Assembly (NCBI RefSeq): GCF_009930875.1
Contig: NZ_CP025249.1
Coordinates: 1,550,001-1,614,000, forward strand
DNA from: Actinomyces sp. 432
GTDB lineage: Bacteria > Actinomycetota > Actinomycetes > Actinomycetales > Actinomycetaceae
DNA length: 64,000 nt
Reading direction: 5' to 3'
Part shown: one piece after another, positions 2,166-51,438 of the stretch
Layout: each line of letters starts with the position of its first letter
Numbering within the stretch: position 1 is the first letter of the stretch
Notes under the pieces: model-generated
Seen by the model: the letters and a program-made list of their open reading frames with translations, nothing else
Database searches by the model: none
What the model was told of the DNA's origin: nothing
Position numbers and translations under genes: made by a program

Positions 2166-2570
2166 TCAGTGCCTGCGGCTGGAGACGCGGATACCGCTCC
2201 AGCGCTCCCCCATTGAGGCCGCGGAGGTCGCGTGCATGCCGGCTGTTCGCGCCGCCTCCTCGATCTCGGTGGCGTCAACCGCCCCGGTGGTGCGCGCCTT
2301 GGGGGTCAGAACCCACACCAGGCCGTCACCGTCGAGGTTGGCCTGGGCGTCAACCAGCAGGTCGGTCAGGTCGTCGATGTCACCGTCGTCGTCGCGCCAC
2401 CAGATGATTGCGGAGTCCGCAACGTCCTCGAAGTCCTCGTCCACGAGCTCGGTGCCGGTCTGGGCCTCGGCGGCCTGTCGTAGGGCCTCGTCGACGTCGT
2501 CGTCGTATCCGAATTCCTGGATGATCAGACCGGGGGCGAAGCCGAAGGCTCCGGCCGCTGTACTCGCCAC
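2166..2570 (-). CDS. DUF3052 family protein
   Basis: A 134-residue acidic protein resembling the actinobacterial DUF3052 family, including the DSAIIWWRDDDGD segment and the DGLVWVLTPK strand. The function is unknown. In this phylum the family is often found beside aceE, as here, where it is divergent from aceE. The GTG start is supported by GGAGAGA eight bases upstream. The link to pyruvate dehydrogenase is contextual only. Confidence 0.8.
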   Translation of the reverse strand: MASTAAGAFGFAPGLIIQEFGYDDDVDEALRQAAEAQTGTELVDEDFEDVADSAIIWWRDDDGDIDDLTDLLVDAQANLDGDGLVWVLTPKARTTGAVDATEIEEAARTAGMHATSAASMGERWSGIRVSSRRH

Positions 2571-2934
2571 TGCTGTTCTCTCCGTTTCATGCCGGGGCCG
2601 CTTGGCCCGTGCGTCGGCCGCCTTCGCGGCACTCGGTTCTAGCTACTGCACTAGCCCACCGCACCAGACCCGCCGGACGCAAGCGAACACGCCCGAGAGC
2701 ACGACGCCCGCCCGCGGGATCCTTCAGAGCCGCCGCCTGTAATACACGCCACAACGTGCTCGAGGCCACATCTGCTCTGGGACTTTATTCCCGATTTTGG
2801 GTGCGTCGGAGCGCCTCCGCCTCCTAGATTAGGAGTGCTAGTAGCGCACGCGACCGGCGCGGCGGGCGATGCCCTCGGCACACCGCCTGCCGCGCCCCGT
2901 CTAAGCCGCCCGGACACGAAGAAAGAGGATCTCC
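2571..2934. promoter_or_regulatory. Intergenic region between DUF3052 and aceE
   Basis: A 364-base divergent intergenic region with no convincing gene. It should hold the promoters of both flanking genes. The clearest sign of regulation is a short inverted repeat, CTCCTA-gat-TAGGAG, at 2821-2835, about 100 bases before aceE. I could not assign confident -35/-10 boxes. The aceE ribosome site (GAAAGAGGA) ends five bases before its GTG. Confidence 0.35.
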
Positions 2935-5687
<2,753 letters not shown>

Positions 5688-5706
5688 GCGCTCCCATCGC
5701 CAGGAC

Positions 5707-5750
5707 GCAGGGGCGGCGTCGGCGGGCCAACCCGCCGACGCCGCCCCTGC
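5707..5750. terminator. Bidirectional terminator between aceE and aspA
   Basis: A perfect 20-bp inverted repeat with loop CCAA sits exactly between the converging stops of aceE and aspA; the aspA TGA begins two bases after it. The symmetry and location fit a shared terminator. There is no long T tract, as is common in high-GC actinobacteria. Confidence 0.8.
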
Positions 5751-5751
5751 C

Positions 5752-7215
5752 TCAACCCTCAACCACGGCACGCGCATCCTCGCCCGAGCCTGAGTGGTGG
5801 CCGGCGTCCCGGTAGCGCGGGCGCATCAGGTTCTCCGGGCTGAGCAGCTCATCCAGCGTAGCCTCGTCCAGCAGCCCCATCTCCAGCACCACCTCGCGGA
5901 CGTTGCGCCCGCTCCGGGCGCACTCACGTCCCACCAGGTCACCGTTGCGGTGACCAATCACCTCGTTCAAGTAGGTGACTATGCCGATGGAGTTCATGAC
6001 GTTACGGCGGCACACCTCCGCATTGGCCTCAATACCTACCACGCACAGCTCCCTGAGCGTCACCAGGGCGTGACGCAGCAGCCGGATCGACTCGAAGCAC
6101 GCCTGGGCGATCACGGGCTCCATGACGTTAAGCTGCAGCTGCCCGGCCTCGGCCGCCATCGTCACCGTCAGGTCGTTGCCGATCACCTTGAAGCAAACCT
6201 GGTTAACCACCTCGGGGATAACCGGGTTGACCTTCGCGGGCATGATCGAGGAGCCGGCCTGCCGCTCCGGGAGCCGGATCTCGGCCAGGCCCGCACGCGG
6301 CCCGGAGGACAGCAGCCGCAGGTCATTGCAGATCTTGGACAGCTTCACGGCCAGGCGCTTGATGGCGGCGTGCATGGAGACGTAGGCGCCGGTGTCACCG
6401 GTGGCCTCCAGCAGGTTGTGGGCACCGGTAACCCTCAGCCCGGTCACCTCACGCAGGTGGCGTACCACCGCCTGGCGGTATCCGGGTGGAGTGTTCAGGC
6501 CGGTGCCGATCGCCGTCGCCCCCAGGTTGACCTCCAGCAGCAGCGCCGAGTTGTTCATCAGCCGGGGGATCTCCTCGTCCAGTAGCTCCGCGAAGGCGCG
6601 GAACTCCGATCCCAGGCTCATGGGTACCGCGTCCTGCAACTGGGTGCGGCCCATCTTGAGCACGTCGGCGAACTCCTTGCCCTTGGCCAGCAGGGCGTCG
6701 ATCAGGTCGCACAGGTCCATCTCCAGTCCGTTGACGGCACGGTAGACCCCCAGGCGGAACCCCGTGGGGTAGGCGTCATTGGTGGACTGGGACTTGTTGA
6801 CGTGGTCATTGGGGTTGACGATGTCGTAGCGGCCCTTGGCGTAGCCCAGGTGCTCCAGGGCCAGGTTGGCGATCACCTCGTTGGTATTCATGTTGACGCT
6901 GGTACCCGCACCGCCCTGGAATACATCAATGGGGAACTGGTCCAGGCAGCGCCCCTCCACCAGCACCTGGTCACACGCCCAGGTGATCGCATCGGCGATC
7001 TGCGGACTTATGGTGCCCAGCTCCTTGTTGGTCAGGGCGGAGGCCTTCTTTACCTCCACCATGCCCCGCACGAACTCCTCCTGGTCGCCAACGGTCTCCT
7101 TGGAGATGCGGAAGTTCTCGGTGGCGCGCAGGGTGTGAATCCCCCAGTACACGTCCAGGGGAACCTGGCGGGTACCGAGCAGGTCCTCCTCGGTGCGGGT
7201 TGCTGGTGAAGCCAT
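5752..7215 (-). CDS. aspA: Aspartate ammonia-lyase
   Basis: A cytoplasmic tetramer that reversibly converts aspartate to fumarate and ammonia. The 487-residue length and the sequence fit the aspartase/fumarase superfamily. Visible marks are [11 protein letters not shown] near residue 104, [12 protein letters not shown] near 140, [10 protein letters not shown] near 191, and the catalytic flexible loop [12 protein letters not shown] near 321. The NMNTNEV form and overall sequence favour aspartase over class II fumarase. The ATG lies directly before TCACCAGCAA and its stop abuts the strong hairpin shared with aceE. Confidence 0.93.
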
Positions 7216-7403
7216 GGGTTTCCCTAACTCCGTGCCGCGATGCGCGGGCCGTCGTCGAGCCGGGCCGGTAGTGGAGTCGACGGCGCCTCCCCCGGCCCGA
7301 CCCTACCGAGGGTCATGGAATAACCACGCGATTGACACCCGTTAGAGGCTGCCGTCGAGGTACGGCGGTTCGCTTCCCGGCGTCGGCTCGCTAGCATCAG
7401 CAC

Positions 7404-8609
7404 ATGGACCAGCTCAGCGCCCCGTCGGTCACCGCTCTGCGGCAGGCGCAGAATACCCTCATCGAGCACTCCCTGGACCGCATCAGTGCGGCGCACCCGT
7501 GGTACAACACGCTGCCGGCCACATCCCGGGCGCAGATCCAGACGGTCGCCCGGCTGGGGGTGAGCATGTTCGTCGACTCGGTGGGCGAGCAGTCGGACGC
7601 AGCCGCCCCCTCGGAGATCTTCAACGTCGCCCCCGTGGCCCTGACCGGCACGGTCACGCTGGAGCAGACCCTGGAGCTGGTGCGCACCGTCGTAGACGTC
7701 GTGGAGGAGCAGGCCCCGGACGCGGTGCCGGCTGCCGATCATGATGCGGTCCGCTTCCATGTCCTGACCTTCGGCCGTGACGTCGGCTTCGCCGCGGCAA
7801 AGGTGTATGCCCGCGTGGCGGAGGCACGCGGCGCCTGGGACGCCCGCCTGGAGTCGGTCGCGGTGGACGCCATGCTGCACGACTCCTCCGAGGACGCGGC
7901 CACGCGCGCGAGCGCGGCCGGCTGGAGGGGCACCGGCCCCGTGATTGTAATCGTCGCCCGCACGACGCTCGATGCCCTGGCCGCATCGCGCCTGCGCCAT
8001 GAATGCCGACAACACGTCAGCGACTGCCTGGTGTCCGTGCACGGCGACTCGGTGGTCGTGGTGCTCGGCGGCCAGGCGGAAAAGGAGACTGGGGACAGGG
8101 CCGCGCCCTCCCCGGAGGGCCTGGCCACCGCGGCCGACCGCATCGCCTCCAGCCTCGGCGGGGCCGTGGTCATCGGACCGGTGGTTTCAGGCGTGGCTCA
8201 GGCCGGCCGCTCGCTGCGCTCCGCGCTGGCGGGCCTGCGTGCCCTGCCCGGCTGGGCGGAGGCGCCCAACCCGGTACGCGCAGACGACCTGCTGCCCGAG
8301 CGGATGCTTGCGGGGGACCCCCTGGCCGCCGAGCAGATTCAGGTTCTGGTGACCGAGCCGCTGCGAGCCATGGGCGACCTATACGAGGAGACCGTCGCCA
8401 CGTACCTGGCCCTTGGCCGGAGCCTGGAGATGACCGCACGTACCCTGTTCGTCCATGCCAACACCGTGCGCTACAGGCTGGGGCGAGTCAGCAAGCAGAT
8501 CGGCTGGGACGCCACCGACGCCCGCGACGGCCTGGTCCTGCACCTGGCAGTCATTGTGGGCCGCCTGGCCACCGGAGAGGACGAACAGCCACCCTATGTG
8601 GGACAATAG
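7404..8609 (+). CDS. fasR: PucR-family transcriptional regulator of fatty-acid synthesis genes (FasR-like)
   Basis: A 401-residue regulator with the C-terminal PucR helix-turn-helix (TARTLFVHANTVRYRLGRV near residue 350) and a GGDEF-like/CdaR-type middle region. It lies directly before acpP and fabF. In Streptomyces a PucR-type FasR activates the fabD-fabH-acpP-fabF cluster, so both the family and the location support the name. fabD and fabH are absent here. Its stop codon lies inside a 20-base inverted repeat that may be an operator for the following genes. Confidence 0.78.
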   Translation: MDQLSAPSVTALRQAQNTLIEHSLDRISAAHPWYNTLPATSRAQIQTVARLGVSMFVDSVGEQSDAAAPSEIFNVAPVALTGTVTLEQTLELVRTVVDVVEEQAPDAVPAADHDAVRFHVLTFGRDVGFAAAKVYARVAEARGAWDARLESVAVDAMLHDSSEDAATRASAAGWRGTGPVIVIVARTTLDALAASRLRHECRQHVSDCLVSVHGDSVVVVLGGQAEKETGDRAAPSPEGLATAADRIASSLGGAVVIGPVVSGVAQAGRSLRSALAGLRALPGWAEAPNPVRADDLLPERMLAGDPLAAEQIQVLVTEPLRAMGDLYEETVATYLALGRSLEMTARTLFVHANTVRYRLGRVSKQIGWDATDARDGLVLHLAVIVGRLATGEDEQPPYVGQ

Positions 8610-11327: not shown

Positions 11328-11572
11328 ACAGGGATGCTAGCTTCGAGGCAAACCGCCCGCAGGCTTTCCAGCTTGCCTGCCCTCCCATCCTCACGCAGCA
11401 GGCGGCCATTTCACGGATCCCAGCCCGCGAACGACTTAGTGCGCTGCGTGGGCAGATCATGGCATACACGGCAGGAAGCGTGGCGCTACTGTCCTTCGTA
11501 GGCTCCCTGGCGGTGCTGGACGCCGAACGCGGAGCGCCGGGCCCCCAAACGACCCCCTGCGCCCGGCCGAGC

Positions 11573-11635
11573 ACGACCTCATCAGCCCGAGAACGTCCCC
11601 CACGCGGCGAATACGACCTCATCCGCCCGAGAACG
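11573..11635. repeat. Two copies of a 23-bp direct repeat
   Basis: ACGACCTCAT-M-AGCCCGAGAACG-type units occur at 11573-11595 and 11613-11635 with a single mismatch. They lie in a stretch with no recognisable gene. A third partial copy may precede them. The role is unknown; they could be remnants of a dispersed intergenic repeat. Confidence 0.5.
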
Positions 11636-11699
11636 ACCCTCGAGCACGATCGCCACACCACACTCCCCGCCCGCCGCGCCGCCGGGACACGCGCCATCA

Positions 11700-11987
11700 A
11701 CCACTCACCGAACCGCTGCCGAGCCACCGCGGTACTCCTCATGATTGGCGGCGTAGCGCTGATCGGTGTGGTGACCGCCACCCTCGCCTCCTGGATCATC
11801 TCCCTAGTCACAGAGGAGAACGCCGAGCAGGAGGCGGCTACACGTGCTCAGGTCGCAGACCTACGCGACCAGATCACTGCGCTATCCGAACGGGTCCAGC
11901 GCCTCACAGAGCCAACCGCCGCAGTCGCGGGCGCCGCTGTGGACGAAGACAAAAAGAGCCCCGCCCTCAAGGGCGAGGCTTACGCTC
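11700..11987 (+). pseudogene. C-terminal remnant of an ion-channel protein, cut by the prophage junction
   Basis: The frame encodes one hydrophobic helix (VLLMIGGVALIGVVTATLASW) followed by a charged coiled coil (ATRAQVADLRDQITALSERV). This is the usual end of a bacterial voltage-gated-type potassium channel: the last pore helix plus a tetramerising coil. The selectivity filter and voltage sensor are absent and the upstream frame is low-quality sequence, so this is a remnant. The frame runs through attL and, only because of integration, into the phage tail sequence, ending at 12085. Confidence 0.5.
11951..11980 (-). terminator. Original tRNA-Asn terminator, displaced by the prophage
   Basis: On the minus strand AGCC-t-CGCCC-ttga-GGGCG-g-GGCT followed by CTTTTT makes a rho-independent terminator ten bases beyond the att core. 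It would have ended tRNA-Asn transcription in the uninfected host. It is now about 39 kb from the tRNA gene, stranded on the attL side. Confidence 0.75.
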
Positions 11988-12023
11988 GGCTCCCGCGGTT
12001 GGACTCGAACCAACAACCCTCCG
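11988..12023. repeat. attL core of the prophage
   Basis: Thirty-six bases identical to 51274-51309. They correspond to the 3' part of tRNA-Asn (acceptor strand, T arm, variable loop and start of the anticodon stem), read on the minus strand. Sequence to the left is host and to the right is phage. The tRNA is incomplete at this end. Confidence 0.95.
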
Positions 12024-12085
12024 GTTCACAGCGCGTGATCACACTGCCCGTGGTTGAGCGACGGGCACTCACCATCGCCGCCTAG
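12024..12085 (+). other. Severed C-terminal tail of the viral-form repressor gene
   Basis: In the circular phage genome the repressor frame (from 50985) passes through the att core and continues here for 20 codons, ending VVERRALTIAA then TAG. The frame agrees on both sides: CTC CCG CGG TTG is read identically at attL and attR. The last residues resemble the ssrA/ClpXP tag ending in a non-polar residue followed by Ala-Ala. In the prophage these codons are detached from the repressor. Confidence 0.8.
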
Positions 12086-12279
12086 CGCAGCGATTGCGAG
12101 CACGCATCATGACAGCCACGATCCAGCAGCTCCGGTCACGGCTCGTCCCCCGCAGAGACACGGTGGGCTCACGCGCCGGCCCCGCCTCACCCGCAGCCGC
12201 CGGGTGCCAGATCATCCCCATCTCCCGGGCCACCAGCACGGCAACGACGCCCGCCGCGGGAGACAGGGGAACCGCCGCA

Positions 12280-13077
12280 ATGCTCACCTGGGAGGACACC
12301 ACCGCCCGCTGGACCACCGCACTCGCCGCCGCCGGACGCAGCAAGGGCACCATCCGCCTCTACCGCCACCACGTCATGCGCGCAGCCCGGCTCGTGCCAT
12401 CCTCGCCCGAGGACGTCACCACCGACGACCTACGACAGATCCTCGCCGGAGACTGGGCACCAGACACCCGCAAAAGCATCCGGACCGCACTCACCGGGTT
12501 TTTCCGATGGCTGCACGCCGAGGAACTCATCGCCGAGGACCCGGCCGCACGCCTCGCCCCCGTCAGCGTGCCACCCGGAGTCGCCCGCCCCGCACCCGAG
12601 GATGTCATCGCCCGAGCGCTGGCCGAGGCGGAGCCGAGGACACGCGCGATGATCATGCTCGGCGCCTACGCCGGGCTGCGAGCCGCCGAGATCTCCGCCG
12701 TCGACGTCACCCGCTACGACGGCGCCGGCCTCTACGTCACCGGCAAGGGCGGCAAAACCAGGTACGTGCCCATCATCCGCGACGACCTGCACGCCATCCT
12801 CCGGGACGCGCAACGCCGCGGCGAGAGGTGGCTGTTCCCCGGAGGCACCGGCGGGCACCTCTCCCCCGGACACGTGACAAAACTCGTCTCCGCCGCCCTG
12901 CCCGACGGGTGGACCGCCCACACTCTCCGCCACAGGTGCGCCACCGCTATGTTCGCCGGCACACGCGACCTGCTCGCTGTCGGCGCCGTCCTCGGCCACA
13001 GCAGGCCCGAGACCACCCAGCGCTACGTGCGCATGCCCACCGACGCACTCACCCGAGCCGTCCAGGCAGCCGCCTGA
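12280..13077 (+). CDS. int: Tyrosine-family integrase
   Basis: A 265-residue site-specific recombinase with a SAM-like core-binding domain (residues 1-90) and a complete catalytic domain: Arg134 (AGLRAAE), Lys157/159 (TGKGGKTR), His214-x-x-Arg217 (HTLRHR), His240 (LGHS) and the nucleophile Tyr249. The start chosen is the ATG with GGGAGACAGGGGA upstream; an ATG at 12109 would add 57 low-complexity residues. It lies next to attL and, in the circular genome, directly downstream of the repressor. The C-terminus AVQAAA resembles an ssrA-like degron, as in phages that control integrase by proteolysis. Confidence 0.93.
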   Translation: MLTWEDTTARWTTALAAAGRSKGTIRLYRHHVMRAARLVPSSPEDVTTDDLRQILAGDWAPDTRKSIRTALTGFFRWLHAEELIAEDPAARLAPVSVPPGVARPAPEDVIARALAEAEPRTRAMIMLGAYAGLRAAEISAVDVTRYDGAGLYVTGKGGKTRYVPIIRDDLHAILRDAQRRGERWLFPGGTGGHLSPGHVTKLVSAALPDGWTAHTLRHRCATAMFAGTRDLLAVGAVLGHSRPETTQRYVRMPTDALTRAVQAAA

Positions 13078-14228: not shown

Positions 14229-14267
14229 GCGGCCCCGCCGGAGGGATGCAGTCTCCGGCGGGGCCGC
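14229..14267. terminator. Hairpin terminator
   Basis: A 15-bp stem (GCGGCCCCGCCGGAG) with a 9-base loop begins nine bases after the preceding stop. It isolates the small gene at 13924 from the next one. Confidence 0.7.
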
Positions 14268-14329
14268 GCCCTAGCCACAGGGCAGCACAGACCCTACCCG
14301 ACGCCTCTGACACGACAGGAGACCGCACC

Positions 14330-14734
14330 ATGACCCGCCCCTATGATCACGCCGCCGAGACAGATGCGATCCGCGGCTGGCTCGGCCCACTCGCCCACGG
14401 CACCGACACCGACGCCGCGGAGGAGCGCGTGGAGCGCGTGCGCACCGCCTGGCACGCCGTCAACCAGGCCGCCGCCTGGGACGCCGACGACACCACCGGG
14501 CGGCAGGCCGCCGCCGACGCCGCCGCACAGTACATGCTCGGAGACCTCACCGTCGCCCAGGCCGCCGACGCCGTACTACGCGCCCGCGCGGTACTAGCCG
14601 ACGCCGAGGACCGGCTGCGCGGTACCTGCCTGGCCGCACTGGCCGACGGGCGCGGCGTCACAAAAATCGCCCGCGAGGCAGGAGTGGCCACCAACACCGT
14701 GTACCGGTGGCGCGACGGCAGGACCGACCAGTGA
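14330..14734 (+). CDS. Small protein with a C-terminal helix-turn-helix
   Basis: A 134-residue protein. The first 100 residues are alanine-rich helices. The end (GVTKIAREAGVATNTVYRWRDG) is a compact resolvase-type helix-turn-helix, so the protein should bind DNA. The ATG follows ACAGGAGACCGCACC. The second copy of the palindromic promoter lies just after its stop, so it might act on these promoters, but nothing shows this directly. Confidence 0.65.
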   Translation: MTRPYDHAAETDAIRGWLGPLAHGTDTDAAEERVERVRTAWHAVNQAAAWDADDTTGRQAAADAAAQYMLGDLTVAQAADAVLRARAVLADAEDRLRGTCLAALADGRGVTKIAREAGVATNTVYRWRDGRTDQ

Positions 14735-24631: not shown

Positions 24632-27600
24632 CTACACCCCCAGAGCCTCACGCAGGCGACCACGCGACGCCGGCCCAACCGCACGCTCAATACGCACGTC
24701 CAGCTCGCTGATAATCGAGTTGCTCGAATCCACGAGCGTGACCTTCTCCGGCCACTGACGGTCCGCTATCAGCTGCGCGATGCGGTCCCACTGGCCGCCG
24801 GTGAACACCGGCTCGGGCTTGCCGGTGGCGTTCTCCACCAGGGAGAGGCCCGGCTGCAGCAGGCCTCCCCGGTCGTACTTCAGGCGCCCGTAGGTGACGG
24901 ACCCGTACACCGAGGTCTGGCGGGCGGAGCCGCCCGGGTGCGGCTCCTCCACGATCTGGCCCCTGCCCGCATACCACGCGACGTGGTAGGCGGGGCGGCC
25001 CCAGAACACCACGTCGCCCGGGACCGGGCTGGTGACAGGAGACGCGACGGACTGGTATCCCGCCGCCGTCAGGCGCGGCGCCGGGTGCCCGGTGCGGTTC
25101 AGCGCGTAGTAGATCAGGCCCGAGCAGTCCAGGCCCGGCGGGATAGAGGAGCCACCCCACACATACGGGGTACCCAAAAGGGTCTTCGCGAAGTCGACCG
25201 GTGCGGACCCGGTGCCGAGCGCCTCAGTCTTCTTCTTCAGCCAGCTGCCGATTGAGGTGATTGTCTGGCCGGGAATCTGCTTTACGGCGTCACCGATCAT
25301 GCCTGCCGCCGGAAAAGCCCCCATCAGGGCGTCCACCGGCTTGCGCACTAGCTCAGTGACAGCACCGATCGGGTCGGAGATGATCTCTGCCGCCGCCTCC
25401 ACGGTATTGGCCAGCCAGTCCGTGACGCCCTTAATGCCGCCGCCGATTGCATTCTTGGCTGCATTCCAGATGCCGCCGAGGAAGAAGTGCTGGTAGCCGC
25501 GGTCCCCGATAGCGGACAGACCACTACGGCCTGGCCCGGTGGCCGCCCGGTTCATCGCGTCGACCGCCGCGGGGCCGCCTACGGCGCGCACCCACTCCGG
25601 CCGCATGATCGCCTCGCCGCCCGACAGGGCCAGGGCGCCACCACCGTCAGGAGAGACAAAGTGGTAGACGTCCTTGCCCGGCGTGTAACCGGGCAGGACG
25701 CCGCCGGACGCGTAGCCGGGGATCTTTGCCACGGCTGGCAGGGTGATATTCAGGCCGACCGCTTTCGTGAGCTTGTCGACCAGCTTCTTGATGCCGTCGG
25801 TGTAGATCGTTCCGATGAGGAAGTTTACCGGCTTCGCAGCCAGCGACTTGATGCCGTCCCAGGCCTTCCCGATGGAATCCTTCATGGTGTTGAAGCCGGA
25901 CTTGATCTTGCCGATCACCTTGTTAATGCTGGGCCAGAGGGTGTCGGAGAACCAGGTGGAGACCTTGTTGATTGCGGTCTTGATGCCGTCCCAGGCGGTT
26001 GATATCGCCTTCTTCAGCCCGTCGAACCCGGACTTCAGCCTGTCGATAACCTTCTGAACGAGCGGGCGAAGCGTATTATTGAACCAGTCCGCAACCCTAC
26101 TAATCGCAGTCTTAATACCGTCCCAGACGGTAGACACGGCGGACTTGAAGCCGTCAAACCCGGACTTCAGCCTGTCGATAACCTTCTGAACGAGCGGGCG
26201 AAGCGTATTATTGAACCAGTCCGCAACCCTACTAATCGCAGCCTTAATACCGTCCCAGACGGTAGACACGGCGGACTTGAAGCCGTCAAACCCGGACTTC
26301 AGCCTGTCGATAACCTTCTGAACGAGCGGGCGAAGCGTATTATTGAACCAGTCCGCAACCCTACTAATCGCAGCCTTAATACCGCCCCAGACGGTAGACA
26401 CGGCGGACTTGAAGCCGTCAAACCCGGACTTCAGCCTGTCGATAACCTTCTGAACGAGCGGGCGAAGCGTATTATTGAACCAGTCCGCAACCTTACTAAT
26501 CGCAGCCTTAATACCGTCCCAGACGATTTTGACGGCGACGGCCAGCAGAGCGAAACCGGCCATCACGTTGCCGACGAAGACCATGACTACGGGTTTCACC
26601 CAGGTGTCGAACCAGGACACGACTCCGCGGACCGCGCCCTTGATCCCGTCCCAGACGCCGGAGACCTTCTCGCCGACGGTGCTCACGCCGTCCTTGATCC
26701 CGTCCCAGACTCCCTGGAGCACGGGCACTACGTTGTCGGAGAACCAGCCGACTACGCTGCTTACTGCGCCCTTGATCCCGTCCCAGACGCCGGAGACCTT
26801 CTCCCCGACGGTGCTCACGCCGCTCTTGATCCCGTCCCAAACTCCCTGGAGCACGGGCACTACGTTGTCGGAGAACCAGCCGACTACGCTGCTTACTGCA
26901 TTCTTGATCCCGTCCCAGATGTCGGAGACCTTCTCCCCGACGGTGCTCACGCCGCTCTTGATCCCGTCCCAGACTCCCTGGAGCACGGGGAGCGCGGTGT
27001 CGGAGAACCAGGACACGACTCCGCCGACCACGTTCTTGATCGCGGTCCAGACCTTGGCCATGATCTTCCGGCCGGTCTCGGTCTTCGTGAAGAAGAACCA
27101 CAGGCCGGCCACCAGGGCGGCGATAGCCATTACCACCAGCATGATGGGGTTGGCGTTGGCTACCAGGTTGAACGCAGCCTGCGCCGCCTTGGCCGCGTCC
27201 TGAGCGGCCTTGTAGATGTTCAGGGCCGTGGTCCAGGCCTTGTACGCGGTCACGGCAGCACCAATAGCAACCGCAATCGACAGAACGTAGTCCTTGTTGT
27301 CGCTCAACCACTGCGCTACCGAGGAGATGCCGTCCACGATAGACGGGATTAGCTGCACCACGCGGGTCAGCACCTCGCCGATCTTAGGAGCGGCCTCCGC
27401 GACAAATCCCTGCACCCCAGCCCAGATGGACTCGAGAGTAGGCTTCGCCGCCTCGAAACCGTCCTTCACGGAGATGACGGCCTCACGCACGGACATGAGG
27501 AAGCCAACGAGGCCGGAGTCCTCCTGCTGGCCGAAGATCGGCCCGGTGAAGTCACCGTCAAGAAGAATGGACTTCATGCCCTCGAAGGCAGGCACAATCG

Positions 27601-44566: not shown

Positions 44567-44818
44567 TCAGTCCTCTTCGGGGTCAGTGGTGGGTGGGTTG
44601 GGTGCCAGCTGGCGGGTGGCCCACTCGACTTCGGCCGGGGTCGGCCACTCGGGCTCGCGGGCCAGCTCATCGGTGAGATCCATAGCGGCGGCCTCGCAAA
44701 TCGGCGTGTAGTGCTCCCACACCTGGCCGCAGTAGCGGACACGCAGCTCGCGCGTGTAGTCCGCGGCGAGGATGCGCACGGCGGTACGCCACTCGACCGA
44801 GCCAACGGCGGCGGTCAT
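44567..44818 (-). CDS. Small early protein
   Basis: An 83-residue acidic protein (VEWRTAVRILAADYTRELR; EVEWATRQLAPNPPTTDPEED) without a known domain. Its ATG overlaps the stop of the antirepressor gene in an ATGA junction. Confidence 0.6.
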   Translation of the reverse strand: MTAAVGSVEWRTAVRILAADYTRELRVRYCGQVWEHYTPICEAAAMDLTDELAREPEWPTPAEVEWATRQLAPNPPTTDPEED

Positions 44819-45660
44819 GATTGGGTTCCTTTCTCGTCTAAGTGGTAGCGGCCGGTGGTGAAGCCCTCTATCAGGTCCTCCTGGCCGGTGCCGGTTAGCT
44901 TCGATGTCCACCGCTGGGCGGTGCCGTGACTGGTTGGGACGGTGCGCTCGACGGCGCGCACGTAGCCCTTTTCCAGTGCCCACTTGGTGGGCCGGTTCCA
45001 CATGTCGCCCTTGGCTTTGCACAGCCAGCCGTGGGCTCGCAGCCAGCCGAACAGGTCGGCCTGGTTGCAGGCGATGCCCTCCTGGGTGAGCACGTCCGCC
45101 ACTGCCTTGACCAGTGCCAGGCCCTCGGAGTCGGCCACCGCGCGGCCTAGGGTCGTGTGCGGCCGGTCGGCCTCCACGCGGGCCTCCAGCTCGGCGTGCT
45201 CGGCCTCCAGCTGGGTGCGCGCTGCCTGCTCCTCCTTCAGCCGCGTGGCCAGCCGGATGATGAAGTCCGGGTCAGTCAGGGCGGCCTCGGCGGCGGCGGG
45301 GGTGAGGTAGCCGCCGTGACGGCGGATCGCAGGCAGCACCTCCCGAGTCACCCAGTGCTGGAAGCGCTTCGCCTCGGGCTTGTCAGAGCGGAGGACGACG
45401 GTGTACATGCCGGCCTCGGTGACGGTCGTGACCCGCTGGACACCTCCGGGGGTGTGAATCAGGCTCACACCCTTGTCCTCAGAGTCGATCCGCTCGGCGA
45501 CCTTCGCGACCGTGGACAGGCTGAGCGCCTTGCACAAGTCAGTCAGGACAAAGCGCGGCTCACTATCCGCCCCGGTAAGGGTGCGGATCTCGTGCAGGCC
45601 GAACCGCCAGGTCTCGACGTCAGCAGGCACGCCGTCGGCGGCGATCGCAGTCGCGGTCAT
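44815..45660 (-). CDS. Phage antirepressor, BRO-N plus KilAC domains
   Basis: A 281-residue protein. Residues 18-120 form a BRO-N domain (FVLTDLCKALSLSTVAKVAERID; TVTEAGMYTVVLRSDKPEAKRFQHWVTREVLPAIRRHG, here in two blocks). A coiled linker follows, then a C-terminal KilAC/ANT domain (VADVLTQEGIACNQADLFGW; GDMWNRPTKWALEKGYV). Such proteins oppose prophage repressors or regulate early genes. It could act on the repressor at 50985. It is encoded in the middle of the early operon with overlaps at both ends. Confidence 0.88.
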   Translation of the reverse strand: MTATAIAADGVPADVETWRFGLHEIRTLTGADSEPRFVLTDLCKALSLSTVAKVAERIDSEDKGVSLIHTPGGVQRVTTVTEAGMYTVVLRSDKPEAKRFQHWVTREVLPAIRRHGGYLTPAAAEAALTDPDFIIRLATRLKEEQAARTQLEAEHAELEARVEADRPHTTLGRAVADSEGLALVKAVADVLTQEGIACNQADLFGWLRAHGWLCKAKGDMWNRPTKWALEKGYVRAVERTVPTSHGTAQRWTSKLTGTGQEDLIEGFTTGRYHLDEKGTQS

Positions 45661-46082
45661 GGTGTGGGCTCCTCTCCCAGGTCGAAGACGGCGATGTTGA
45701 ACGTGAAGGTGCGCTGACCCCACCGCTTAGGGGACAGCTCGGTGGAGGCCTCCAGGTGCGGGCCGGCTAGGTGCCGGGCGTCGTCGTCCGGGAGCAGGCC
45801 CGCGTCCACCAGCCCATCCACAATCGGCTTCGCCGTCGCCATAAGGTTGTGCGTGTCCCGACGGCGCCGGTCCGGGAAGAGAATCTCGATCACGATCCGC
45901 GCCCGCTCCAGGCGCGGGGCCCGCGTGAACCGGGCAGTCTGCTCCGAGACAGACCGGACCGACTTAGCGCGAGGATGCCGGTATCGCCAGTGCTTGTGAT
46001 CGTTCTCCGTGAGCACCTGGTCGGCACCCAGCACAATGGACGCCTCCCACACCGGCACAGCAACAACGGCGGTGGTGGTCAT
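45657..46082 (-). CDS. RusA-family Holliday junction resolvase
   Basis: A 141-residue endonuclease that cuts four-way junctions made during phage recombination and replication. The RusA acidic core is visible in RRRRDTHNLMATAKPIVDGL and GLLPDDDARHL, with the conserved aspartates. The N-terminal strand region precedes it. It overlaps its neighbours by four bases on each side. Confidence 0.85.
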   Translation of the reverse strand: MTTTAVVAVPVWEASIVLGADQVLTENDHKHWRYRHPRAKSVRSVSEQTARFTRAPRLERARIVIEILFPDRRRRDTHNLMATAKPIVDGLVDAGLLPDDDARHLAGPHLEASTELSPKRWGQRTFTFNIAVFDLGEEPTP

Positions 46083-50376: not shown

Positions 50377-50865
50377 TCACGCGACCTCCTTGTCGCCAGC
50401 GAGATGGGCGGCGGCGTCATCCAGGGACCAGCACGACTCGCACGCCTGCTCGTGCTCCAGCAGCGCCTCCGCAGACACGCCCGCGAGCGCGGGCCACGTC
50501 CGCTCGACCGCCGCGATGCCGTGGAAGTCCGCCGCGGGCGGGTCAGGGGTGAAGCCGGCGGCCGACGCCGGGGCGGGGGTGGGCTCGGCTGCCTGCGCAG
50601 GAGCCGACTCGACGACGGCGGCACTTGGCGTCTGGACGTCAGCGTCGACGTCTGCGGGGAGGGAGGCGAGGATCTTCGCGCGGCGCTGGGCCGCGAGTTG
50701 GGCGACAGCGTCAGGATCGATCTGCCAGTGCCCGCGGGGAGAGTCGCCCTTCCCGACGTATGGGAGGGTTCCGTCCTGGCACCATCGGGTCACCGTCTTC
50801 ACTGAGACGTTGAGTCTTCGCGCGGCTTCGGCGGCGCTGATGACGTCTACGGCAACTGTTGTCAT
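50377..50865 (-). CDS. Cro/excisionase-like helix-turn-helix protein divergent from the repressor
   Basis: A 162-residue protein. Residues 5-55 form a MerR/excisionase-type winged HTH (ISAAEAARRLNVSVKTVTRW, then GTLPYVGKGDSPRGHWQID). The rest is an acidic Ala/Pro linker with a short helical end (SAEALLEHEQACESCWSL). The ATG at 50865 is chosen because a well-placed minus-strand promoter ends six bases before it. Location divergent from the repressor, across shared operator-like sequence, is where Cro or Xis genes are found. Confidence 0.75.
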   Translation of the reverse strand: MTTVAVDVISAAEAARRLNVSVKTVTRWCQDGTLPYVGKGDSPRGHWQIDPDAVAQLAAQRRAKILASLPADVDADVQTPSAAVVESAPAQAAEPTPAPASAAGFTPDPPAADFHGIAAVERTWPALAGVSAEALLEHEQACESCWSLDDAAAHLAGDKEVA

Positions 50866-50871
50866 ACGATA

Positions 50872-50901
50872 ACCGTAAGAGGTCAAACTGTCGTGTGACA
50901 A
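50872..50901 (-). promoter_or_regulatory. Leftward promoter of the Cro-like gene
   Basis: On the minus strand TTGTCA (plus 50896-50901), an 18-base spacer and TACGGT (plus 50872-50877) lie so that transcription would start at or very near the ATG at 50865, giving a leaderless mRNA. It mirrors the repressor promoter. Confidence 0.5.
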
Positions 50902-50949
50902 CTCTTGTCGCTAACGATTTGACGTCCAACGTCACCCACTCGGCAACGC

Positions 50950-50984
50950 TTGCATATCGTTGACATCTGTCATACTGTTAGCGC
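50950..50984 (+). promoter_or_regulatory. Repressor promoter, leaderless, with operator-like half-sites
   Basis: TTGCAT (50950-50955), a 17-base spacer and TACTGT (50973-50978) place the transcript start at about 50985, the A of the repressor ATG, so the mRNA would be leaderless. GTTAGCG (50977-50983) overlaps the -10/+1, and its complement CGCTAAC recurs at 50909-50915; these could be operator half-sites. Confidence 0.6.
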
Positions 50985-51314
50985 ATGACCATCAACGCAG
51001 CAGTCGGCTTCATCCCGACATTCACCATCCACGACCGCCTGCGGAAGGCGCGCGAGGCTGCGTGCCTGGAGCAGGCCGAGCTGGCCGAGCAGATCGGCGT
51101 CAGCCGCGCGTCAATCTCCGCCTATGAGAGCGGCCGCGTCGCCAAGCCTCGGCGGATCGTCGTCAACGCCTGGTCACTGGCTACAGGGGTGCCGGTGCAG
51201 TGGCTCATCACCGGCATCGCGCCGACCCCCGAAGACGACGGAGCCCCGGCCGCTGGGGACCGGGGCTCGGCTGGGCTCCCGCGGTTGGACTCGAACCAAC
51301 AACCCTCCGATTAA
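50985..51314 (+). CDS. Prophage immunity repressor, C-terminally changed by integration
   Basis: A 109-residue HTH_3/XRE repressor: HTH at about residues 29-50 (QAELAEQIGVSRASISAYES), then NAWSLATGVPVQWLITG, a segment typical of actinophage immunity repressors. The last 11 codons (LPRLDSNQQPS then D, stop) are the antisense of tRNA-Asn, because the gene runs through attR. In the circular phage the frame continues into 12024-12085 and gives 128 residues ending LTIAA. Integration therefore swaps an ssrA-like tail for a short stable end. Integrase follows on the same strand in the phage genome. Confidence 0.88.
   Translation: MTINAAVGFIPTFTIHDRLRKAREAACLEQAELAEQIGVSRASISAYESGRVAKPRRIVVNAWSLATGVPVQWLITGIAPTPEDDGAPAAGDRGSAGLPRLDSNQQPSD
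51274..51309. repeat. attR core of the prophage
   Basis: The 36-bp repeat identical to 11988-12023. Here it forms the 3' half of the intact tRNA-Asn gene and at the same time codes for residues of the repressor on the opposite strand. Sequence to its right is host. Confidence 0.95.
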
Positions 51315-51347
51315 CAGTCGGATGCTCTGCCATTGAGCTACGCGGGA
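51276..51347 (-). tRNA. tRNA-Asn (anticodon GTT), integration site
   Basis: The reverse strand gives acceptor TCCCGCG/CGCGGGA, D arm GCTCAATGGCAGAGC, anticodon stem CCGA/TCGG with loop CTGTTAA (GTT), and T arm GGTTCGAGTCC; discriminator G, no encoded CCA. The 3' half is supplied by phage DNA, so the gene remains functional after insertion. The phage hairpin at 51241-51268 now lies downstream of it instead of the host terminator stranded at 11951. Confidence 0.95.
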
Positions 51348-51438
51348 TCGCGTTTGACGCGGGTGGAACTCTAGCAAGCCGCGGGCACCGACGTCGAATC
51401 GGGCTCGCCTCGCGAATTGGCTTAATCGCGCCAGAAAA

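What the first reader, a model, noticed from the sequence alone, without database searches (positions are those of the whole stretch)
50985..51314. Integration-dependent immunity: the att site lies inside the repressor gene and insertion removes a degron-like tail
Seen directly: the repressor frame runs through the 36-bp att core and stops at 51314 in tRNA-Asn sequence. Joining 51309 to 12024, as in the circular phage, keeps the frame (CTC CCG CGG TTG on both sides) and adds 20 codons ending VVERRALTIAA-stop at 12085, so the viral form is 128 aa and the prophage form 109 aa. Integrase follows on the same strand and ends AVQAAA. Established: mycobacteriophages BPs, Giles and Brujita use this layout; there the viral repressor has an ssrA-like tag and is unstable, and integration yields the stable form. 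Inference: the same switch operates here, in a tRNA-Asn-integrating phage of a different host family. I know of no description of it in this group.
Basis: partly seen in the sequence, partly recalled or inferred. Interest (0 to 1): 0.95.

Follow-up and report, generated by a model that had tools for sequence, protein, structure and literature searches.

The report
Prophage repressor trimmed by integration
In this likely Actinomyces prophage the repressor gene runs into the tRNA-Asn gene where the virus sits and stops there, whereas in the circular virus it is predicted to carry a 20-residue tail that would mark the repressor for destruction, so only an integrated virus would be kept silent; the same switch is already known from related viruses of other bacteria.

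Summary
A 36-bp core lies at 11988-12023 (attL) and 51274-51309 (attR). The 109-codon repressor frame runs through attR and takes its stop from tRNA-Asn; across the predicted circular junction it reads 128 codons ending ERRALTIAA. Best reading: integration-dependent immunity of the BPs/Wizard kind, in which integration exchanges a degron-like tail for a host stop. The repressor is homologous to proteins in 223 phage records, including the immunity repressors of Wizard and Angel. Tails of non-integrated-form relatives end in Ala-Ala in 36 of 51 cases (31 of 45 clusters), against 1 of 55 other genes beside the named repressors and 3 of 34 ORFs of this prophage. Five viral contigs carry the uninterrupted form and five other prophages the split form. 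Protein instability and immunity were not tested. The system is already reported in Mycobacterium and Gordonia phages and predicted in Bifidobacterium prophages; my searches found no report for Actinomyces. A side observation: in 4 of 49 genomes of the genus a host K+ channel frame also ends in this tRNA in the same frame, so integration there would move the tail onto the channel. Verdict: real, a new member of a known kind.

The parts
50985..51314 (+). repressor gene, integrated form, 109 aa; XRE-type HTH; last codons and stop lie in tRNA-Asn antisense
51274..51309 (.). attR core, 36 bp
11988..12023 (.). attL core, 36 bp
51274..51347 (-). tRNA-Asn (gtt), intact; integration target; supplies the stop codon of the short repressor
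12024..12085 (+). 3' end of the predicted viral repressor frame: degron-like tail ending ALTIAA, stop at 12085
   Evidence: family pattern
51301..51309 (.). inferred strand-exchange zone (equivalent 12015-12023), by analogy with G052 and Demequina att sites
   Evidence: inference
12280..13077 (+). tyrosine integrase, ends AVQAAA (265 aa from this start; longer frame opens at 12094)
50377..50865 (-). divergent HTH_17 protein, likely Cro/excise-like regulator
   Evidence: position as in Wizard and Angel
50961..50972 (.). candidate operator TGACATCTGTCA between repressor and divergent gene
44815..45723 (-). antirepressor-like gene (Bro-N and KilAC domains)
51241..51268 (-). GC-rich hairpin next to the tRNA 3' end, inside the repressor C-terminal linker; folding not beyond shuffles (z -1.3)
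11459..12085 (+). attL frame: host K+ channel remnant, core, phage tail in one open frame (208 codons)

Best explanation
The prophage repressor gene stops after 109 codons inside tRNA-Asn, while in the circular virus it is predicted to read on to 128 codons with a tail that would act as an ssrA-like degradation tag, so this is likely a new member of the integration-dependent immunity systems of phages BPs and Wizard. Likely course: after infection the long repressor is made but destroyed, so lytic genes stay on; when integrase (itself probably unstable, ending QAAA) accumulates, it recombines attP with tRNA-Asn; the exchange leaves the tail at attL and gives the repressor a host-derived stop; the stable short form then represses the divergent promoter, probably through the operator at 50961-50972. 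Shown: core, frames, gene order, homology, tail pattern in the family. Inferred: the circular junction, instability of the long form, repression and immunity.
For: 36-bp cores and continuous frame; stop supplied by tRNA-Asn. Homology to proteins in 223 phage records, annotated immunity or transcriptional repressor in most rows shown. Same gene order in Wizard and Angel: divergent HTH or directionality gene, repressor, integrase. Tails end AA in 36 of 51 non-integrated-form sequences, 31 of 45 clusters, against 1 of 55 neighbouring genes and 3 of 34 prophage ORFs and 1.7-2.7% of stops or joins. Five viral contigs show the uninterrupted form with integrase downstream; the tails end TAA, PAA, RAA, AAAA and AAL in residues. 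Five other prophages with integrase beside attL give tails ending AAA (G015), AAAA (G052), RRAA (G065), DKAA (Demequina), LAS (G059). P0004 and P0006 read the core in another frame and still end RRAA. Tail motif VITL resembles VIPL of Wizard, Fishburne and Phayonce. Candidate operator of the BPs type.
Against: No stability, repression or immunity data. 15 of 51 tails do not end AA. Three further att or homologue tails were left out of that count and none ends AA: G024 (GLGV, no integrase match), Arcanobacterium (SFY, cores 1.2 kb apart, no integrase match) and G171 (KQVA); with them it is 36 of 54. Two Angel-type ends are AS, so AA is not required. The host's own tag ends VLVA, not LAA. The host clpX reads in two overlapping frames in this assembly, while rpoB is intact. 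Relaxed operator patterns are not enriched in the window.
Confidence: 0.86

Rival explanations
1. Ordinary tRNA integration beside a repressor: overlap and tail are by-products of the phage carrying half a tRNA gene; both forms are equally stable and immunity does not depend on integration.
For: Function untested; two att-flanked remnants (G024, Arcanobacterium) and 15 of 51 tails lack an Ala-Ala end.
Against: Ala-Ala ends are far above every control used; the long form of the homologous BPs repressor is reported as degraded through its tag (PMC4557955, passages).
Confidence: 0.08
2. The immunity repressor is another prophage protein and this HTH protein has a minor role.
For: Other DNA-binding candidates exist: HTH_17 at 50377-50865 and HTH_23/HTH_29 at 14246-14734.
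Against: PHROG 2328 transcriptional repressor and annotated immunity repressors match this protein; ten further prophage ORFs had no HTH match in Pfam. Not every ORF was scanned.
Confidence: 0.04
3. The prophage is a decaying remnant whose repressor and tail no longer work.
For: The adjacent host channel is a remnant; two other Asn-site elements in the genus look decayed (G024, and the left repressor fragment of G015).
Against: Terminase, portal, major head, tape measure, endolysin, integrase, repressor and antirepressor frames are open and match their families.
Confidence: 0.1

Closest known systems
Gordonia phage Wizard (and relatives) integration-dependent immunity
   Same: 50% repressor identity over 99% of the query; same gene order and strands; long form ends EPAAA; tail motif VIPL against VITL; layout reported in PMC5559632 (passages)
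   Different: Gordonia host and tRNA-Arg attB (PMC5559632, passages); tail otherwise different
Mycobacteriophage BPs / Angel type (cluster G; the cluster label of Angel is recalled)
   Same: Angel gene 33, 45% identity over 80%; divergent directionality gene, repressor, integrase in that order; short and long forms shown by experiment for BPs (PMC4557955, passages); GACANNTGTC operator core
   Different: Angel long form is 136 aa and ends DKAS; different tRNA frame; Mycobacterium host
Cluster P mycobacteriophages Fishburne and Phayonce
   Same: repressor, integrase, divergent genes and antirepressor in one cassette (PMC9635641, passages); ends ELAA and ERVA
   Different: 34-37% repressor identity; tRNA-Thr attB reported (PMC9635641, passages)
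Bifidobacterium prophages Bb423phi2 and 689b-1
   Same: repressor at attR, integrase at attL, 18-residue tag-bearing tail in the reconstructed viral form (PMC6109161, passages)
   Different: tRNA-Met site; I did not compare the sequences

Membership tests
Integration-dependent immunity system | attP core inside the repressor coding sequence (PMC9934374) | tested here: met
   junction predicted from attL and attR
Integration-dependent immunity system | shorter prophage form through a stop in host sequence (PMC9934374) | tested here: met
   109 against 128 codons, stop within tRNA-Asn
Integration-dependent immunity system | long form ends in an ssrA-like tag with C-terminal AA (PMC9934374) | tested here: met
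   ends ALTIAA; sequence level only
Integration-dependent immunity system | long form unstable, short form stable and immunity-conferring | not testable with these tools
   needs bench work
Integration-dependent immunity system | tyrosine integrase next to attP on the repressor strand | tested here: met
Integration-dependent immunity system | no arm-type integrase sites flanking the core (PMC9635641) | tested here: inconclusive
   no direct repeats of 10 nt or more within 12024-12290 or within 51120-51273; the two flanks were scanned separately
Integration-dependent immunity system | integrase also carries a C-terminal proteolysis signal (PMC4557955) | tested here: inconclusive
   ends AVQAAA; stability untested; 6 of 9 named-phage integrases end AA
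Integration-dependent immunity system | divergent Cro/excise-like gene with operator between | tested here: met
   HTH_17 gene; operator is a candidate only
Integration-dependent immunity system | repressor homologous to a characterised member | tested here: met
   Angel gene 33, Wizard gene 47

The most novel reading that the evidence does not exclude
One crossover works at both ends: while the repressor gains the host stop, the phage degron is moved onto a host potassium-channel gene that ends in the same tRNA-Asn in the same reading frame. In strains with an uninterrupted channel (A. ruminicola and A. succiniciruminis type) lysogeny would stabilise the repressor and at the same time destabilise the channel. 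In the window the attL frame already reads channel remnant, core, phage tail (11459-12085).
Probability: 0.06. Interest if true: 0.75.

Novelty: new member of a known kind. Interest (0 to 1): 0.42.

Why it matters
It extends a very simple lysogeny switch, proposed to be ancestral, to Actinomyces, with homologues reading into tRNA-Asn also in Nesterenkonia and Demequina records. The design may be under-recognised because many prophage records end at the repressor stop codon, which separates the two halves of the gene. The family gives a comparative set for what the degron needs (small last residues, free sequence before them). It also predicts a testable side effect, transfer of the tail onto a host gene.

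Tried and rejected
Operators: relaxed TGACANNTGTCA (10 matches, 15.8 expected) and GTCANAYNGTTAGCG (21 matches, 18.0 expected; pattern derived from the region itself) are not enriched; only the exact palindrome stands out. A promoter and terminator scan of 50800-51400 found nothing. The hairpins beside the cores fold no better than many shuffles (z -1.3 and -1.7).

Tails from IMG/VR prophage records: several end exactly at the repressor stop (L012, L013, L018, L020, L022, L024), so their tails could not be read from the far contig ends fetched, apart from G059 (L022), which holds a second core. L011 and L033 are identical to the window and L018 carries the same repressor frame as Demequina L035, so these are not independent. 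The integrase search of viral contigs returned only the window's own phage.

An in-core TAA at attL of G052, Demequina and Arcanobacterium first looked like a closed viral frame. For G052 and Demequina I read it as host-derived, because a second difference at the position that would pair with it in the tRNA travels with it and because the frame beyond continues to RRAAAA and DKAA. A crossover left of both positions is not excluded by pairing alone; it would close the viral frame in those two.

Tails shorter than 15 residues were padded with arbitrary letters at the far end for clustering; the last residues counted are untouched.

Full report
1. Observation. Two copies of a 36-bp core, 11988-12023 and 51274-51309, bound a prophage of 39,286 bp. 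At the right copy tRNA-Asn(gtt) is intact on the minus strand, 51274-51347. A 109-codon frame, 50985-51314, enters the core and stops at TAA within the tRNA gene. Reading from the right core into the sequence after the left core, as the excised circle would, keeps the frame and gives 128 codons ending VVERRALTIAA. The integrase frame follows on the same strand and ends AVQAAA. The circular junction is a prediction.

2. Host. The window lies in a 3.14-Mb single-contig genome. Two contigs of genus-mates (G028:C27, 148,860 bases; G041:C41, 92,216 bases) have the lengths of named contigs of Actinomyces ruminicola DSM 27982 and A. succiniciruminis AM4, so the genus is very likely Actinomyces. ARAGORN gives two tmRNA calls; the one at the Rfam match has the tag ADKTRADFVLVA.

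3. Gene set. The repressor has HTH_19, HTH_3, HTH_31 and Phage_CI_repr matches and PHROG 2328, transcriptional repressor, over residues 6-108. The divergent neighbour (50377-50865) is an HTH_17 protein; its PHROG matches are mixed, the best being a terminase small subunit family, then MerR-like regulator and excisionase families. An antirepressor-like gene lies at 44815-45723. Terminase, portal, major head, tape-measure and endolysin genes match their families. The integrase has a catalytic domain and sub-threshold similarity to the core-binding domain; Pfam shows no other domain.

4. Known relatives. tblastn finds the repressor in 223 phage records, each under 60% identity: Mycobacterium 153, Gordonia 58, Arthrobacter 11, Curtobacterium 1. 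The best rows are Wizard and relatives (50%); Angel gene 33 matches at 45% over 80%. Wizard and Angel share the order divergent gene, repressor, integrase. Nine named phages were opened. Their repressors end EPAAA (Wizard), DKAS (Angel), VTAA (GRU3), VAAA (Dmitri), CDAA (Bipper), ERVA (Phayonce), ELAA (Fishburne), VTAA (Nyceirae) and GEP (Popper, whose layout differs).

5. Tail pattern. Of 37 homologous proteins, 6, the window's own among them, end in the tRNA-type stop; 21 of the other 31 end in Ala-Ala. Adding 20 tails (window, five other prophages, five viral contigs, nine named phages) gives 36 of 51, or 31 of 45 clusters. Left out before that count: G024, Arcanobacterium and G171, none ending AA; with them 36 of 54. 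Controls: 1 of 55 other complete annotated genes in the same named-phage stretches and 3 of 34 ORFs chosen from this prophage; 1.7% of 1,280 stops and 2.7% of 74,772 joins in the prophage. The sequences are related, so the binomial value is not a true probability. P0004 and P0006 read the core in another frame and still end RRAA. V[IV]x[LI] occurs in 11 of 51 tails (here with G171 in place of Popper) against 14 of 945 null stretches; the motif was chosen after inspection.

6. Split and uninterrupted forms. Of 16 viral-contig relatives, the window's own prophage included, 10 end ..SNQQP[SFA]D at the tRNA-type stop, one (L020) ends ..PSG at its contig end, and 5 (L016, L017, L019, L021, L023) run past the core into tails ending ATAA, RPAA, VRAA, AAAA and RAAL, each with an integrase match downstream. 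Among other prophages with an integrase beside attL the tails are PAAA (G015), RRAAAA (G052), RRAA (G065, att sites on two contigs), DKAA (Demequina) and LALAS (G059). 6 of 49 genomes of the genus (E 1e-12) and 8 of 394 of the class (E 1e-10) hold a homologue, the window's genome counted in both.

7. Crossover. The window's cores are identical, so its exchange point is not resolved. In G052 and Demequina attL differs from attR at two positions that would pair in the tRNA. If both are host-derived, the exchange lies in the last 9 bp of the core, equivalent to 12015-12023 and 51301-51309. This is inference.

8. Operator. TGACATCTGTCA at 50961-50972 is the only exact match to TGACANNTGTCA in 64 kb; the reported BPs palindrome is CGACATATGTCG (PMC4557955). 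GACANNTGTC occurs in 4 of 21 regions upstream of repressors that I examined: window, L013, Angel, Dmitri. Relaxed patterns are not enriched.

9. Reciprocal exchange. Left of attL the frame entering the core is a remnant of a host K+ channel: the channel search aligns only residues 182-282 there, and the preceding stretch resembles an earlier part while the segment that holds TVGYGD in sister genomes is replaced. Pfam finds no domain in this frame. 29 of 49 genus genomes have a channel match; in 4 (G010, G025, G028, G041) an uninterrupted channel frame runs into tRNA-Asn in this same frame and ends LPRLDSNQQPSD; G029 has a remnant. Integration in such a host would put the tail on the channel. 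I made no literature search on this point.

10. Literature. Seen as passages: PMC4557955, PMC5559632, PMC6109161, PMC5513430 (Arthrobacter phage Galaxy: similar order, no recognisable tag, attP elsewhere), PMC9934374, PMC9635641. Seen in search listings only: the other papers. The founding paper, Broussard et al. 2013, is not held. PMC9934374 defines the system by a core inside the repressor gene, a shorter prophage form through a host stop, and an AA-ending tag; these are met at sequence level. It also describes tandem prophages of this kind.

11. Verdict. A genuine locus of this type, predicted to work as in BPs, in what is likely a new host genus for it. New member of a known kind; the functional steps are untested.

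Noticed in passing
G000:C1:2021617-2022815, outside the window (L180, L181): The host clpX profile matches in two overlapping frames (7-236 and 231-409 of 414), each below the cut-off, while rpoB lies in one open frame: a lesion or an assembly error.
   Followed up: partly
11459-12023: K+ channel remnant left of attL; the segment that holds the selectivity filter in sister genomes is replaced by sequence with a degenerate 20-bp repeat at 11563-11638.
   Followed up: partly
L155 (G015) 2237-2572: An N-terminally damaged second repressor fragment precedes attL in the same frame and so carries the tail ..PLPAAA: possibly the trace of a tandem or successive integration.
   Followed up: partly
L156 (G024) 2465-7455: A 4.9-kb stretch between two Asn cores with a repressor fragment at the left and a repressor at the right, without an integrase match; its tail does not end AA.
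   Followed up: partly
26025-26550: At least four direct repeats with 132-bp spacing inside the tape-measure gene.
   Followed up: no
L160 (G025) 2545-2628: The last 28 residues of a host channel frame match the window repressor's end at 86% identity, so host and phage share sequence left of the core, by capture or an old excision.
   Followed up: no
L165-L170: Class-level homologues in other genera; four (L166, L168, L169, L170) overlap tRNA-Arg instead of tRNA-Asn, so the family uses several tRNA sites.
   Followed up: no
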